This document shows positions 33,545 to 41,022 of a DNA stretch of 64,000 nucleotides, piece by piece. The DNA lies in the NCBI RefSeq assembly GCF_034479375.1, contig NZ_CP140155.1, positions 1,550,001 to 1,614,000 on the forward strand, in the 5' to 3' direction. The stretch is from Rhodopseudomonas palustris (GTDB lineage Bacteria; Pseudomonadota; Alphaproteobacteria; Rhizobiales; Xanthobacteraceae). The notes beneath the pieces are model-generated. The model did not search any database. It worked only from the letters and a program-made list of their open reading frames with translations, and was not told where the DNA came from. Made by a program: the position numbers and the translations under genes. Every line of letters begins with the position of its first letter. The first letter of the stretch is position 1.

Positions 33545-36500
33545 ATGAAGATCGAACGGCGCTACACCACCGACGGCCAGTCACCCTACGCGGCGATTCA
33601 GTTCCGGCTGACGACGAGCGAGATCCGCAATCCGGACGGCTCCGTGGTGTTCCGCCTCGAGAATGTCGAAGTGCCCGAGGCCTGGTCGCAGGTCGCCTCC
33701 GACGTGCTGGCGCAGAAATATTTCCGCAAGGCCGGCGTCGCCGCGCGCTTGAAGAGGGTCGAGGAAGAGACCGTGCCGTCCTGGCTGTGGCGCTCGGTGC
33801 CGGACACCGAGGCGCTCGCCGCCCTGCCCGAGGCCGAGCGCTTCGTTTCCGAACATTCCTCCAAGCAGGTGTTCGATCGCCTCGCCGGCTGCTGGACCTA
33901 TTGGGGTTGGAAGGGCGACTACTTCTCGTCCGAGGACGACGCCCGCGCGTTCTACGACGAGCTGCGCTACATGCTGGCGTCGCAGATGGTCGCGCCGAAT
34001 TCGCCGCAATGGTTCAACACCGGCCTGCACTGGGCCTACGGCGTCGACGGCCCCGGCCAGGGCCACTATTACGTCGACTACAAGACCGGCAAGCTGACCA
34101 AGTCGAAATCCGCCTACGAGCACCCGCAGCCGCACGCCTGCTTCATCCAGGGCATCGAGGACGACCTCGTCAACGAGGGCGGCATCATGGACCTGTGGGT
34201 GCGTGAGGCGCGGCTGTTCAAATACGGCTCCGGCACCGGCTCCAACTTCTCCCGCCTGCGCGGCGAAGGCGAGCGGCTGTCCGGCGGCGGCCGCTCCTCG
34301 GGCCTGATGAGCTTCCTCAAGATCGGCGACCGCGCCGCCGGCGCGATCAAGAGCGGCGGCACCACGCGGCGCGCCGCCAAGATGGTCGTGGTCGACGCCG
34401 ACCATCCGGATATCGAGGCCTATATCGACTGGAAGGTGAAGGAGGAGCAGAAGGTCGCCGCCCTCGTCACCGGCTCCAAGCTCAACCAGAAGCACCTCAA
34501 GGCGATCCTGAAGGCCTGCGTCAACTGCCAGGGCTCCGGCGACGACTGCTTCGACCCCGACAAGAACCCGGCGCTGCGCCGCGAGGTCAAGATCGCGCGC
34601 CGCGCGCTGGTCACCGACGCGATGATCAAGCGCGTCATCCAGTACGCCAAGCAGGGCTACAAGGAGATCGACTTCCCGATCTACGACACCGATTGGGATA
34701 GCGAGGCCTACCTCACCGTCTCCGGCCAGAACTCCAACAACTCGGTGTCGCTGAAGGACGACTTTTTGCGCGCGGTGGAGACGGATGGGGACTGGAATCT
34801 GACCAGCCGCACCACCAAAAAGGTGATGAAGACGCTGAAGGCCCGCGATCTCTGGGAGAAGATCGGCACCGCCGCCTGGGCCAGCGCCGATCCCGGCCTG
34901 CACTTCAACACCACGATGAACGACTGGCACACCTGCAAGGCCTCGGGCGACATTCGCGCGTCGAATCCGTGCTCGGAATACATGTTCCTCGACGACACCG
35001 CCTGCAATCTGGCCTCGGCCAACCTGCTGACCTTCTACGACACCACCGCCAATGTGTTCGACCTGCCCGCCTATGAGCATCTGTGCCGGCTGTGGACCGT
35101 GGTGCTGGAAATCTCGGTGCTGATGGCGCAGTTCCCGTCCAAGCAGATTGCGGAGCTGTCTTACGAGTTCCGCACGCTCGGCCTCGGCTTCGCCAATATC
35201 GGCGGCCTGCTGATGACCATGGGCCTCAGCTACGACTCCAAGGAAGGCCGCGCGCTGTGCGGCGCGCTCTCCGCAATCATGACCGGCGTATCGTATGCGA
35301 CCTCGGCCGAAATGGCCCAGAAGCTCGGCCCGTTCCCCGGCTACAAGAAGAACGCCGCCCATATGCTGCGCGTGATCCGCAATCACCGCCGCGCTGCCCA
35401 TGGCGAGAGCCGCGGCTATGAGGCGCTGTCGGTGGCCCCGGTGCCGCTCGACCATGCCGGCTGCCCGATCCCCGAAGCGATCGCGCATGCCAAAGCGGCG
35501 TGGGACCGCGCGCTCGAACTCGGCGAACTGCACGGCTATCGCAACGCGCAGGTCTCGGTGGTGGCGCCGACCGGCACCATCGGCCTCGTCATGGATTGCG
35601 ACACCACCGGCATCGAGCCCGATTTCGCGCTGGTGAAGTTCAAGAAGCTCGCCGGCGGCGGCTACTGGAAGATCATCAACCGCGCCGTGCCGGCGGCCTT
35701 GCGCATCCTCGGCTATCCGGAAAACCAGATCGCCGAGATCGAGGCCTACGCGGTCGGCCACGGCTCGCTCAGCAACGCGCCGGCGATCAACGTCTCGACG
35801 TTGAAGGCTAAGGGCTTCACCGACGAGGCGCTGGCGAAGGTCGAGGCCGCGCTGCCGACCGCCTTCGACATCAAATTCGCCTTCAACAAATGGACCTTCG
35901 GCGAGGACTTCCTGCGCGAGACGCTGAAGCTCGAAGCCGAGGCGATCGCCGCGCCGAACTTCGACCTGCTCGCCGCGATCGGCTTTTCCAAGCGCGAGAT
36001 CGAGGCCGCCAATATCCACATCTGCGGCGCCATGACCGTGGAAGGCGCGCCGCACCTGAAGGCCGAGCACTACAGCGTGTTCGATTGTGCCAATCCCTGC
36101 GGCAAGGTCGGCAAGCGCTATCTGTCGGTCGAGAGCCACATCCGGATGATGGCGGCGGCGCAGCCGTTCATCTCGGGTGCGATCTCTAAGACCATCAACA
36201 TGCCGAACGACGCCACGGTGGAGGATTGCAAGTCCGCCTACATGCTGTCGTGGAAGCTCGCGCTGAAGGCCAACGCGCTGTATCGCGACGGCTCGAAACT
36301 GTCGCAGCCGCTGAACTCGCAGCTGATTGCCGACGACGACGAGGACGACGACGCGCTCGACAATTTCCTGGAGAAGCCGATGGCGGCGCGCACCGCCCAG
36401 ATCTCCGAGAAGGTGGTGGAGCGCCTGGTCGAGCGCATCGTGGTGATGCGCGAGCGCGAGAAGATGCCGGATCGCCGCAAGGGTTACACCCAGAAGGCGG

Positions 36501-37321
36501 TGGTCGGCGGCCACAAGGTCTATCTGCGCACCGGCGAATATGACGACGGCCGGATCGGCGAGATCTTCATCGACATGCACAAGGAAGGCGCGGCCCTCCG
36601 CTCCTTCATCAACAATTTTGCGATCGCGGTGTCGCTCGGCCTGCAATACGGCGTGCCGCTCGAGGAATATGTCGACGCCTTCACCTTCACGAGGTTCGAG
36701 CCCGCCGGCCCGGTCCAGGGCAACGACTCGATCAAGTACGCGACCTCGATCCTCGACTACGTGTTCCGCGAACTCGCCGTCAGCTACATGGGCCGCTTCG
36801 ACCTCGCCCATGTCGACCCGAGCGAGACCGGCTTCGACGCCATCGGCAAGGGCGTCGACGAAGGCAAGGCGCCGGAAGGCTCCACGCCGGGCCAGCACGC
36901 CGCGACCAAATATCTGTCGAAGGGCCTCACCCGCTCGCGCACCGACAATCTGGTGGTGATGCGCAGCGCGCCGGCCGCGCCCGACGGCGGCTCAGCGCCG
37001 GTCAAGATGGCCTACTCGCAGCCGGACACCCACGCCAAGTCGACCTCCCGCATCGGCGACGTCCTCGAAGGCGCCACCGCGCTGAAGCAGGAAGCCGACC
37101 ACGATCTGTCGCCGACCGAAAAGCTCGAAGCCCTGCAATGGAGCCGCGCCGGCGCCGCCGCCGCGACCCAGCCCGCAGCCTCGAAAGCCGAACGCCGCGC
37201 CGAAGCCAAGGCGCGGGGCTACGAGGGCGACAGCTGCGGCGAATGCGGGAATTTCACGCTGGTGCGGAACGGGACTTGTATGAAGTGCGATACCTGCGGC
37301 AGCACGACGGGGTGTAGCTAA
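33545..37321 (+). CDS. nrdJ: Vitamin B12-dependent (class II) ribonucleotide reductase
   Basis: Reduces ribonucleotides to deoxyribonucleotides using adenosylcobalamin, so it works with or without oxygen. At 1258 residues it is the long alphaproteobacterial form. The N-terminus [21 protein letters not shown] is family-like. The catalytic region has [21 protein letters not shown] (about residues 474-494). Then [10 protein letters not shown] and later [27 protein letters not shown] in the C-terminal domain can be read. The last 30 residues carry four closely spaced Cys ([13 protein letters not shown]), a zinc-ribbon-like or redox-active tail. It is followed by its own terminator. Confidence 0.97.
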
Positions 37322-37342
37322 CTACCAATTCCACAAGCTGCA

Positions 37343-37366
37343 GGGCGGCGAGTAATCGCCGCCCTT
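37343..37366 (+). terminator. Terminator of nrdJ
   Basis: GGGCGGCGA (37343-37351) pairs with TCGCCGCCC (37356-37364) around GTAA, followed by TT. It lies 21 bp past the nrdJ stop. Beyond it base composition shifts to A/T-rich. Confidence 0.65.
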
Positions 37367-37499: not shown

Positions 37500-38438
37500 G
37501 TGGCCAAACGACATATCAATCGACAGATCACGGCCTCATTCCACTACTTGGTCAAAACGGAAAAGAGCGAAAACAAGAACAAGGAACTTACTCAGACAGG
37601 ATTCACACTTGGTGAGTTCGAAACCATAAGAGCAAGAATCGCGAACACAACTCCTCTCGAGGTAAATAACGAGACGGTCGCCACAAGGATCAAACTTGGT
37701 CTCGACCTGCCGTTCACACACTACGAACTCGTTGAAAACCAGCTTCACTTCGGCGAATTTGAAGGAGCTTACTACGGCCAAGAATACCGCAACAATAAAC
37801 TCGGCACCATCTCTGCCGACAGTCTAAATCTACGGACTTTTCACTACCTACTCACCCGACTGCGAGACGGACGAATCTTAATTGGCGTGACCTACAATGG
37901 TCAATTTGGCGATTACGAAGGAATACGACAGTGCTTCAGCAACCTTCTAAAGTCCAACGCAACTGTCACATCCAAAACCATTAAGAGCATTTCCGACGAA
38001 ATTGGAAAGGGCGAGCCAGTTGAAATCAAGCTCACATTTCGGACAGCCCGAGAACGACCAGAGCGGAAGGGCCTATTCGGACGTTCAGGCGTGATCGCTA
38101 TTAAATCCACCGAATACGGCGAGGGATTTGGAGAAGAAGTCGCCAAAATGGCGAAACACGCCAAAGGAACATTGCCTGATCGAAAACGCTCCATAGCCGA
38201 CCTCGTTAATTCAAGCGAAATGATCGAATTGGATGACGACGACATCATCGCCGTTAGTGCATTGGTGCGAGAAGACGGAAGAGTTCGAACCGTGTACTTC
38301 CTTGGCGAGAATAACTTTTCAACCAAATATCCTCTTGATGTTGCCGTTTCGCCCGATGGCAAGGCGAACCGTTTGGAAGTTAAAGACGCACTAATCAAAC
38401 TGATGCGCACCAAGATCATCCCGCTGATCGGCGGATAA
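37500..38438 (+). CDS. Soluble protein of a two-gene A/T-rich cassette, RexA-like candidate
   Basis: 312 residues, GTG start with AGG 8 nt upstream, no signal peptide or membrane helix. Codon and base use are clearly A/T-richer than all flanking genes, so it was probably acquired. I do not recognise a firm family. Gross features recall lambda RexA: a short basic strand start, a mid-chain LRDGRILIGVTYNGQFGDYEGI followed by a beta segment EIKLTFRTA, and a C-terminal sensor-like block REDGRVRTVYFLGENN before a terminal helix. The partner membrane protein begins 3 bp after the stop, so they are translated together. An exclusion or abortive-infection role is inference. Confidence 0.6.
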   Translation: MAKRHINRQITASFHYLVKTEKSENKNKELTQTGFTLGEFETIRARIANTTPLEVNNETVATRIKLGLDLPFTHYELVENQLHFGEFEGAYYGQEYRNNKLGTISADSLNLRTFHYLLTRLRDGRILIGVTYNGQFGDYEGIRQCFSNLLKSNATVTSKTIKSISDEIGKGEPVEIKLTFRTARERPERKGLFGRSGVIAIKSTEYGEGFGEEVAKMAKHAKGTLPDRKRSIADLVNSSEMIELDDDDIIAVSALVREDGRVRTVYFLGENNFSTKYPLDVAVSPDGKANRLEVKDALIKLMRTKIIPLIGG

Positions 38439-38441
38439 GTC

Positions 38442-39032
38442 ATGTTGGCGCTAGTCAAAGCAAACTACAAGACATATCACAACTCGCGGACCGGAAGCCG
38501 TGAGGGCTACTTGATTCGACTATGCGGATCAGCGGTGGCGAGCCTCGCCGCTGCCTGCCTCCTTGATATCGCAGCAAATAGCGGAATGATGGTTACAGCA
38601 CTGAGCGTATTGACAGGATTTGTCTTTACCGCCCTTTGTTCCGACTACTCGCTCGCTGACGCCAAACTCCCACCACCCTCAGATGAGACGCGAAGGGCCG
38701 AACTTGAACGACTCGGCGCCTTGGCGGTGAACTTTCAGACGCGCTCCGCGTACTTCATCACCATTGCGATTTGCAGCCTTTGCCTGCTGGTGCTGATTAG
38801 CACTTCAGCATCATCCAATAGCATTCTGATGATTTTTGAGAAGAATCGTCTTCAGCTAGGCACCCCCTATCTACCGGAACTTCTTTCGATTGCCGGCAAC
38901 TCCATACGCGTAGCTCTATCGGGACTTGCCGCCTTCATGTTCATAGAATGTGTATACACGTTCTATCGCCTTTCCGAGACAACATTGGCCATCGTCGATG
39001 CTCGCAGAAGCTACCTACGCCCTGACTTCTGA
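38442..39032 (+). CDS. Four-helix membrane protein of the same cassette, RexB-like candidate
   Basis: 196 residues starting 3 bp after the RexA-like gene. Four hydrophobic helices are visible at about residues 27-45, 49-70, 103-124 and 155-177. A charged cytoplasmic-type loop (DETRRAELERLG) lies between helices 2 and 3. The last helix and tail, ALSGLAAFMFIECVYTFY then RLSETTL, resemble the last helix and tail of lambda RexB as I recall it. RexB also has four helices, but only 144 residues. It is A/T-rich like its partner. The likely role is an ion-leak or membrane effector triggered by the soluble protein. This is a hypothesis only. Confidence 0.6.
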   Translation: MLALVKANYKTYHNSRTGSREGYLIRLCGSAVASLAAACLLDIAANSGMMVTALSVLTGFVFTALCSDYSLADAKLPPPSDETRRAELERLGALAVNFQTRSAYFITIAICSLCLLVLISTSASSNSILMIFEKNRLQLGTPYLPELLSIAGNSIRVALSGLAAFMFIECVYTFYRLSETTLAIVDARRSYLRPDF

Positions 39033-39041
39033 GACGCAAGA

Positions 39042-39146
39042 GCTCGTAGGGCGGATTAGCTCGTAGGGCGGGTGAGCGTAGCGATACCCGGGACTTAGCA
39101 TGACTGGATAGCCGTCCCCGGATGGCGCTTCGCTTATCCGGGCTAC
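39042..39146. repeat. Palindromic intergenic repeat of the GTAGGGCGG family
   Basis: Two starts CTCGTAGGGCGG in tandem (39043 and 39060), then GGTGAGCGTAGCGATACCCGGG. After a spacer the partly complementary arm GGATGGCGCTTCGCTTATCCGGGCTACG follows. It directly precedes, and seems to have replaced, the 5' part of a DUF4160-type gene. Confidence 0.65.
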
Positions 39147-39151
39147 GGGGC

Positions 39152-39235
39152 TACGATGCCGCCGCCGTCGCGGACAACCGCGACCTGATCCTGAGAGCAT
39201 GGCATGACCATTTCGGCCACCAGCGTCCGCTTTGA
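39152..39235 (+). pseudogene. C-terminal remnant of a DUF4160-type gene
   Basis: An open stretch of 27 codons ending in TGA at 39233-39235 reads AVADNRDLILRAWHDHFGHQ near its end, which matches the usual C-terminus of DUF4160 proteins. No start or N-terminal part remains: a palindromic repeat abuts it at 39146. It overlaps the first codons of the DUF2442 gene in another frame, the same arrangement as in intact DUF4160-DUF2442 pairs. Confidence 0.6.
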
Positions 39236-39473
39236 CGATCATACAATGTGGGTCGAGTTGTCCGACGGTCGCACCCTCGGCGTGCCGCTGGCGTGGTTTC
39301 CGCGGCTATTGCGGGCAACGCCGGCCGAGCGCGCCGAGGTCGAATTGAGCCGCGTCGGCCTGCATTGGGAAGCGCTCGACGAGGACATCTCGGTCGCCGG
39401 CCTGCTGGCAGGCCGCGGCGACGTCACGCAAGCCTCGGAATCGGAGGCGTCGCTCGTAGCCCGTGCGGATTAG
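39204..39473 (+). CDS. DUF2442-family protein
   Basis: 89 residues. The core SVRFDDHTMWVELSDGRTLGVPLAWFPRLLRATPAERA, followed by GLHWEALDEDISVAGLL, is the diagnostic DUF2442 pattern. This family normally forms a small bicistronic toxin-antitoxin-like pair with DUF4160, which here survives only as a fragment. The last few residues and the stop codon are supplied by sequence that looks like half of an intergenic repeat (GTAGCCCGTGCGGATTAGCGG), so the native C-terminus may have been altered. Confidence 0.8.
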   Translation: MTISATSVRFDDHTMWVELSDGRTLGVPLAWFPRLLRATPAERAEVELSRVGLHWEALDEDISVAGLLAGRGDVTQASESEASLVARAD

Positions 39474-40728: not shown

Positions 40729-41022
40729 CTACTCCGCCGCCGCCCTCGCCGCCTGCGGCCTGACGAACGCCACCACGGCGGCGGCGTCCGCCGTGAATTC
40801 CGGATCGTCGCGCAATTGTTCGAGGCTGCGCGGCTGCGGGATCGGGTCGCCGTCGGCGCGCAGCAGCGCGAGATGGCCGCCGAGCGCTTCGGCGGCGTTG
40901 TCGATCGCCTGCTCGAAGGTGTCGCCCGCCGAGATGCAACCGGGCACGTCGGGAAAGGCGACGCCGTAGGAGGTGTCGCGGTCCTTGTAGACCAGCGCGA
41001 GGTAGCCGGACGTTGCGCTCAC
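40729..41022 (-). CDS. hicB: HicB-family antitoxin
   Basis: 97 residues. The start is GTG 41022 with GGAGG 5 nt upstream. The HicB fold signature is clear: YLALVYKDRDTSYGVAFPDVPGCISAGDTFEQAIDNAAEALGGHL. It is short and lacks a long C-terminal DNA-binding extension. The last third is Ala-rich (AAVVAFVRPQAARAAAE). The hicA toxin upstream carries a frameshift, so HicB remains without a working partner. Confidence 0.88.
   Translation of the reverse strand: MSATSGYLALVYKDRDTSYGVAFPDVPGCISAGDTFEQAIDNAAEALGGHLALLRADGDPIPQPRSLEQLRDDPEFTADAAAVVAFVRPQAARAAAE

What the first reader, a model, noticed from the sequence alone, without database searches (positions are those of the whole stretch)
37500..39032. 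A/T-rich two-gene cassette with RexA/RexB-like architecture, candidate phage-exclusion system
Seen in sequence: two genes 3 bp apart with far lower G/C than all neighbours, wedged between the nrdJ terminator and a repeat-filled region. The first encodes a soluble 312-residue protein and the second a 196-residue protein with four clear membrane helices. Established: in lambda, soluble RexA activates the four-helix membrane protein RexB, which depolarises the cell on infection. Inference: gene order, size classes, the DGR-IGVTY-like mid-segment, the late EDGRVRTVYFLGENN block, and the final helix VALSGLAAFMFIECVYTFYRLSETTL of the membrane protein (compared with RexB from memory only) suggest a chromosomal relative or analogue of RexAB outside lambdoid phage. 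If true, it is a stand-alone abortive-infection module in an alphaproteobacterium.
Basis: partly seen in the sequence, partly recalled or inferred. Interest (0 to 1): 0.85.

Follow-up and report, generated by a model that had tools for sequence, protein, structure and literature searches.

The report
RexAB-type phage-exclusion gene pair
A foreign-looking pair of bacterial genes, one soluble protein and one four-helix membrane protein, is probably a remote relative of known prophage suicide-defence modules and sits at a chromosomal site where related bacteria carry other anti-phage genes.

Summary
In detail: gene A (37500-38438, 312 aa, soluble) and gene B (38442-39032, 196 aa, four membrane helices) are 3 nt apart and A/T-rich. 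No Pfam, NCBIfam, PHROG or PADLOC family matches. Homologues of A are rare; those with a placed host are alphaproteobacterial; a B-type gene follows in 7 of 7 loci with DNA beyond A. The window and Nitrobacter pairs lie directly 3' of nrdJ; some others lie among phage or recombinase genes. All 15 other genomes held of the genus have nrdJ and lack A; 14 of 15 carry another defence-associated gene within about 4 kb. A distant pair family (L074/L075) links A to proven RexAB-type sensors, CarolAnn gp44 and Sbash gp30 (A-L074/75: E 4.7e-5; L074/75-CarolAnn: E 3.3e-7; 40 column-shuffles each far below). Lambda RexA/RexB were not reached by sequence, nor RexA by fold; CarolAnn and lambda also miss each other here. 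Best reading: a new branch of RexAB-type abortive infection, sensor A triggering membrane effector B. Phage activity is untested.

The parts
   Evidence: ORF; its 3' end is found in 16 of 16 genus genomes held; in 8 relatives compared, identity ends at or near its stop codon
37322..37499 (.). intergenic stretch with a perfect 10-bp inverted repeat (37342-37365)
   Evidence: read; not listed by the consensus terminator scan; no promoter-like site listed here
37500..38438 (+). gene A: soluble 312-aa protein, predicted infection sensor; remote relative of CarolAnn gp44 / Sbash gp30
   Evidence: homologues; profile link through L074/L075; model, pLDDT 73, pTM 0.67; four phage-protein fold matches
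38442..39032 (+). gene B: 196-aa protein with four membrane helices, predicted membrane-damaging effector
   Evidence: hydropathy; strong B hits track A; profile link to L074/L075 B
39041..39146 (.). repeat element starting 9 nt after B; related copies occur in the nrdJ-side stretches of 11 of 15 congeners
   Evidence: (7 places in own genome at E<=0.001)

Best explanation
Genes A and B are a two-gene abortive-infection module of the RexAB type, in a branch whose placed hosts are all Alphaproteobacteria. Protein A stays in the cytosol and senses an intracellular sign of phage infection (a phage protein or nucleoprotein; inferred from CarolAnn and Sbash). It then switches on protein B, which sits in the inner membrane as four helices, probably oligomeric, with both ends and a charged central loop in the cytosol (helices computed; orientation and oligomer inferred). 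Activated B leaks or permeabilises the membrane, growth stops and the phage is not released. The pair moves with phages and by replacement at chromosomal hotspots; in this genome it occupies the 3' side of nrdJ. Shown by computation: gene pair, linkage, hotspot, phage-gene neighbours in some relatives, remote kinship of A. Inferred: sensing, activation, membrane damage, defence.
For: Linkage: a B-type gene starts within 3 nt of, or overlaps, the end of A in 7 of 7 A loci with DNA beyond A (window, L002, L003, L005, L007, L008, L009); L003 shows only the first 81 residues of B before a stop near the contig end; L010/L011 (one contig), L012 and L013 end at or inside A and were not counted. Searched independently over the 397 order genomes, strong B hits (E 2e-72 or better) are the same three genomes that have A. 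Location: within about 4 kb 3' of nrdJ, 14 of 15 congeners hold other defence-associated genes, including AbiH, AbiTii, AIPR/AbiU, ThsB, SIR2, BrxC/D and AAA_15. Phage neighbours: L005, L011 and L012 have terminase and tape-measure genes upstream; L074 lies by a phage portal gene. Kinship: A-profile to L074/L075 Prob 68, E 4.7e-5, 219 columns, score 41.3 against at most 21.0 in 40 column-shuffles; L074/L075 to CarolAnn/Sbash/Sejanus Prob 93, E 3.3e-7, 278 columns, score 56.0 against at most 23.5. B to L074/L075 B Prob 96, E 1.1e-8. Helix layout of B resembles CarolAnn gp43 and Sbash gp31. Those two systems are experimentally supported exclusion modules (PMC6426606, PMC6426596, passages seen), and in the P. 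putida pair the membrane protein is the toxic effector (PMC12894663, parts 1, 2 and 4 of 9 read). Fold: four uncharacterised tailed-phage proteins match the A model at E 1.2e-10 to 2.4e-5.
Against: Direct comparison of A with the CarolAnn family is not significant (Prob 0.5), so the link rests on one intermediate family of two sequences; of these, L074 alone matches A well (E 2.1e-5) but L075 alone hardly (Prob 3, E 0.015). B is not linked directly to gp43/gp31 (only the L074/L075 B profile gives a weak hint, E 0.013, score 21.3 vs shuffle maximum 14.2), and column-shuffles are a lenient null for membrane proteins. One of the three weak B hits (L073) has a partner unrelated to A. No match to lambda RexA or RexB by any test, and the A model matched no solved structure at E<=0.001. 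The window pair shows no prophage around it in the 33.5-43.4 kb that I read (not scanned with phage models). No phage or toxicity data are known to me for any homologue of A found here.
Confidence: 0.62

Rival explanations
1. Inverted roles, as described for mycobacteriophage Butters gp30/gp31: the soluble protein A is the anti-phage effector and the membrane protein B only anchors or restrains it.
For: PMC12894663 (introduction) cites Butters as a RexAB-type pair in which the cytosolic partner is the effector; A is the better conserved partner (72% vs 56% identity to Nitrobacter).
Against: A links to CarolAnn/Sbash sensors, whose published model has the membrane protein as effector. I did not compare with Butters sequences; the Butters paper was seen only as a search listing.
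Confidence: 0.12
2. A Kiwa-like membrane complex (KwaA four-helix, KwaB soluble DNA-binding; recalled) that senses phage attachment and blocks phage DNA replication or transcription without membrane damage.
For: Size classes and a four-helix plus soluble pair also fit KwaA/KwaB (recalled).
Against: No PADLOC model matched A or B at E<=10; the Foldseek PDB list showed no Kiwa entry among the 50 rows printed of 1005; the profile link goes to CarolAnn/Sbash.
Confidence: 0.08
3. A toxin-antitoxin or addiction pair (B toxin, A antitoxin or regulator) that stabilises prophages and islands rather than stopping phages.
For: Mobile context (resolvase-type gene L055, integrase-type gene L056) and a putative membrane toxin.
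Against: Presence at a site whose other occupants are mainly defence-associated genes; kinship to defence sensors.
Confidence: 0.1
4. Not defence: a phage cargo or host membrane process unrelated to infection.
For: No function is known to me for any close homologue; no named family matched.
Against: Hotspot, phage neighbours and remote kinship all point to defence.
Confidence: 0.08

Closest known systems
CarolAnn gp44/gp43 and Sbash gp30/gp31 (prophage exclusion, Gordonia and Mycobacterium phages)
   Same: Two-gene order soluble then membrane; four hydropathy peaks with a charged central loop of 29-31 residues against 33-39 in the B family; remote profile kinship of the soluble partner through L074/L075; phage-borne, as some relatives of the window pair are.
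   Different: Sensors about 60 residues longer, no significant direct sequence match; the CarolAnn pair is next to the immunity repressor, the window pair is chromosomal beside nrdJ. The third member used, Sejanus gp45, shows only three peaks.
Lambda RexA/RexB
   Same: Gene order, soluble plus four-helix partner, inferred sensor-effector logic.
   Different: No sequence or profile relation, no RexA fold match in the rows shown; RexB is 144 aa against 196.
Pseudomonas putida RexABpp (PP_5643/PP_5644, PMC12894663)
   Same: Two genes, soluble sensor and four-helix effector, in a prophage (paper).
   Different: I did not obtain its sequence, so kinship was not tested; it was tied to lambda RexA by HHpred in that paper, and no such tie was found for gene A with my smaller profiles.
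Kiwa (KwaA/KwaB)
   Same: Size classes only (recalled).
   Different: No PADLOC match at E<=10.

Membership tests
RexAB-type exclusion modules, CarolAnn/Sbash branch | Soluble partner homologous to CarolAnn gp44 / Sbash gp30 | tested here: met
   Only through the L074/L075 family: A2-A9 E 4.7e-5, A9-A7 E 3.3e-7; merged A2+A9 vs A7 Prob 20, E 0.0011; A2 vs merged A9+A7 Prob 58, E 1e-4. Direct A2-A7 not significant.
RexAB-type exclusion modules, CarolAnn/Sbash branch | Membrane partner with four helices encoded immediately downstream | tested here: met
   7 of 7 loci with DNA beyond A have a B-type gene start (one truncated, L003); four peaks in 6 of 6 complete B proteins.
RexAB-type exclusion modules, CarolAnn/Sbash branch | Membrane partner homologous to gp43/gp31 | tested here: inconclusive
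   Direct no; L074/L075 B vs gp43/gp31 family score 21.3, E 0.013, above 40 of 40 shuffles (max 14.2).
RexAB-type exclusion modules, CarolAnn/Sbash branch | Both genes needed to exclude phages; soluble partner dimeric and DNA-binding | not testable with these tools
   Needs experiment.
Lambda RexA/RexB (PF15969/PF15968) | A matches the RexA model or lambda RexA profile | tested here: not met
   Control: CarolAnn, Sbash and Sejanus also fail PF15969 and the lambda profile.
Lambda RexA/RexB (PF15969/PF15968) | B matches the RexB model or lambda RexB | tested here: not met
Lambda RexA/RexB (PF15969/PF15968) | A has the RexA (RdgC-like) two-domain fold | tested here: inconclusive
   Model pLDDT 73 from 5 sequences; Foldseek PDB 0 matches at E<=0.001, 8TWQ not in the 50 of 1005 rows shown; the second aligner was unavailable.
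Kiwa | Matches KwaA/KwaB defence models | tested here: not met
   PADLOC, 0 families at E<=10 for A and B; that the library holds Kiwa models is recalled.

The most novel reading that the evidence does not exclude
RexAB-type exclusion is a broad sensor plus four-helix-effector superfamily reaching across phyla, of which this alphaproteobacterial clade is an undescribed branch, and the 3' side of nrdJ in this genus is a dedicated exchange site where small defence operons, this one included, are swapped against each other.
Probability: 0.5. Interest if true: 0.68.

Novelty: new variant of a known kind. Interest (0 to 1): 0.58.

Why it matters
Lambda RexAB was one of the first abortive-infection systems described, yet how it is triggered is still unknown (PMC12894663). 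A branch in Alphaproteobacteria, with a family that bridges it to actinobacterial phage systems, gives a set for finding conserved sensing and pore residues and for testing whether the sensor-effector logic is general. The nrdJ side, occupied by different defence-associated genes in nearly every genome of the genus, is a compact place to look for new systems.

Tried and rejected
Family libraries: no match for A or B beyond chance level. Solved-structure sequence searches: chance-level matches only. Direct profile comparison with lambda RexA/RexB and with CarolAnn gp44/gp43: nothing; the known lambda-CarolAnn relation also failed, so these tests are insensitive rather than negative. Phage records: no tblastn match to A, B, the G553 A or the L075 A in 50,697 records, at E limits 0.1, 1, 0.1 and 0.01. 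IMG/VR: single-protein queries found nothing; alignments found L010/L011, L012 and L013. L073: its B-like gene sits beside a 311-aa protein unrelated to A in hhalign, so it was not used as support. Promoter and terminator scans: at chance level. Survey samples overlap and all include the window genome: family 2 of 198, order 3 of 397, class 1 of 385, phylum 2 of 398, genus 1 of 16; family of G553 1 of 20 and family of G1130 1 of 105, each only the known one. Other phyla were sampled only by the single-protein scan. Only 8 of the 15 congeners were fetched at first (closest ones); the other 7 followed so that the count covers all. In the congener not counted (G156, L051) the 247-aa protein had only weak PADLOC matches and was not scanned with Pfam. 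Proteins scanned at the site were chosen from ORF lists, not every ORF was scanned; L060 and L064 were scanned with Pfam only, the first L052 gene with PADLOC only.

Full report
What is there. Gene A (37500-38438, GTG start, 312 aa) and gene B (38442-39032, 196 aa) lie 3 nt apart on the + strand, just after nrdJ (33545-37321). Their GC is 0.47-0.54 against 0.61-0.73 upstream. B has four hydropathy peaks, A none. No Pfam, PADLOC, PHROG or NCBIfam model matched beyond chance. The window genome is one contig of 5.3 Mb holding one copy of A. Its genus is not named by the tools; G102 of the same family matches in contig number and coordinates the Nitrobacter winogradskyi record of L002. I suspect Rhodopseudomonas, but no call shows it.

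Homologues and linkage. A is rare. Distinct finds: Nitrobacter L002 (72% identity), a Rhodobacteraceae MAG L003 (52%), Sinorhizobium plasmid L005 (28%, three strains), unnamed alphaproteobacteria G573, G553, G1130, and IMG/VR contigs L010/L011, L012, L013, whose hosts I did not establish. Survey counts, window genome included: 2 of 198 in the family, 3 of 397 in the order, 1 of 385 in the class, 2 of 398 in the phylum, 1 of 16 in the genus; samples overlap. None in 50,697 phage records. Where DNA beyond A is held, a B-type gene starts within 3 nt of the end of A or overlaps it in 7 of 7 loci; in L003 it is cut by a stop after 81 residues, near the contig end. Three contigs end at or inside A and say nothing. 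Searching the same number of order genomes (397) with B alone gave three strong hits, exactly the three genomes with A, and three weak ones.

Selection and transfer. Between the window and Nitrobacter, A has pN 0.17 and pS 0.82, B pN 0.29 and pS 0.78, whereas nrdJ has pS 0.40. So both genes are under purifying selection, and they have diverged at silent sites far more than their host gene. I infer separate acquisition or exchange at the same site rather than simple inheritance.

The nrdJ site is a defence hotspot. All 16 genomes held of the genus have the nrdJ end, only the window genome has A. In the 8 relatives compared by blastn, identity to the window stops at or near the nrdJ stop codon (37314-37319 in seven, 37367 in one) and A/B gave no hit. 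ORFs next to nrdJ in all 15 relatives were scanned in part with Pfam and PADLOC. Found within about 4 kb: BrxC/D-SngB (L047), AAA_15 ATPases (L048, L060, L064), AIPR/AbiU (L049, with a second further on; L061), AbiTii (L050), AbiH with PDC-S15 (L052), SIR2 with a sub-threshold STAND match (L053), SIR2 of ThsA type (L054), RelA_SpoT PDC-S33 (L058), DUF5343 with Swt1-HEPN, PDC-M34 (L059), ThsB TIR (L062), SLATT with ThsB TIR (L063). L051 had only weak PADLOC capP/RmrA matches. That is 14 of 15. AAA_15 ATPases are a broad family, so those 3 of the 14 are the weakest. I ran no matched control of other gene ends. A search for nrdJ, defence island and hotspot (any two) listed 10 of 116 papers, none of the ten with nrdJ.

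Phage neighbours. L005, L011 and L012 have terminase large subunit and tape-measure genes upstream of A; the stored contigs of L011 and L012 end right after A. L008/L056 has an integrase-type gene next door and L007/L055 a resolvase-type one. L009/L057 places the pair directly after a uvrB-like gene (my reading). L003 has ordinary-looking genes upstream. The window pair itself has no evident prophage around it in what I read (33.5-43.4 kb).

Link to proven systems. The three weak B hits each sit beside a soluble protein of 307-315 aa. Those in L074 and L075 are 49% identical, and L074 lies near a phage portal gene (PF04860). Their joint A-profile matches the window family (Prob 68, E 4.7e-5, 219 columns; L074 alone E 2.1e-5, L075 alone only E 0.015) and matches CarolAnn gp44 / Sbash gp30 / Sejanus gp46 (Prob 93, E 3.3e-7, 278 columns). 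Against the window family, eight unrelated proteins and four reversed alignments scored at most 16.8; 40 column-shuffles per comparison reached 21.0 and 23.5 against observed 41.3 and 56.0. Window-family plus L074/L075 against CarolAnn gives Prob 20, E 0.0011; window family against L074/L075 plus CarolAnn gives Prob 58, E 1e-4; window family against CarolAnn directly is not significant. For B, the window family matches L074/L075 B (Prob 96, E 1.1e-8; shuffles at most 20.6; three unrelated proteins at most 15.9); L074/L075 B against gp43/gp31 is only suggestive (E 0.013; score 21.3, shuffles at most 14.2), and the direct comparison shows nothing. The third weak hit, L073, has a B-like protein (E 6e-5) with an unrelated partner.

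Lambda. No profile test reaches RexA or RexB. CarolAnn fails too, against the lambda profile and against Pfam RexA (134), although its authors report a shared DUF4747 motif. The A model (pLDDT 73, pTM 0.67, five sequences) found no PDB match at E<=0.001; 50 of 1005 rows were shown and 8TWQ was not among them. In predicted viral structures it found four at E 1.2e-10 to 2.4e-5, all uncharacterised tailed-phage proteins of 277-322 residues, with TM-scores of 0.30-0.45. So the fold is phage-associated, but a RexA-like fold is unproven.

Mechanism. Published: CarolAnn and Sbash pairs exclude phages and are modelled as a sensor activating a four-helix channel (PMC6426606, PMC6426596, passages); in P. 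putida, overproduced RexApp triggers RexBpp, with membrane permeability in a subpopulation but no detected depolarisation (PMC12894663, parts 1, 2 and 4 of 9); purified RexA homologues dimerise and bind DNA non-specifically (PMC11077077, passages). By kinship and architecture I assign A as sensor and B as membrane effector. Every functional step for this pair is inferred.

Verdict. A real, conserved, mobile two-gene module, most likely a new branch of RexAB-type abortive infection, not a demonstrated relative of lambda RexAB itself. A search for any three of RexA, RexB, Alphaproteobacteria, Rhodopseudomonas and Rhizobium listed 8 of 174 papers, none of the eight with RexA or RexB.

Noticed in passing
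window 37322 onward and L047-L054, L058-L064: The 3' side of nrdJ is a variable site with a defence-associated gene in 14 of 15 congeners; it looks like a genus-wide defence hotspot.
   Followed up: yes
window 39041-39146; L049 2487-2596 and L059 1832-1938 (both oriented with nrdJ on +): A repeat element directly follows the cargo genes in the window and in these relatives, with matches in the stretches of 11 of 15 congeners; it could be the seam used for exchange.
   Followed up: partly
L073 1915-3388: A B-like membrane protein is paired with an unrelated 311-aa soluble protein, suggesting that this effector type is combined with different sensors.
   Followed up: partly
L009 1489-3007 / L057 9579-11097: In G1130 the pair lies directly 3' of a uvrB-like gene as an A/T-rich insert, possibly another such hotspot.
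   Followed up: no
window 39204-39473 and 40729-41022 (- strand): Small genes that look like a DUF2442 protein and a HicB-like antitoxin (names recalled); similar DNA recurs in other order at the same site in L049, L050, L051 and L052.
   Followed up: no
L063 3945-5324: SLATT-domain membrane protein next to a ThsB-type TIR protein at the nrdJ site, a further two-gene defence candidate.
   Followed up: no
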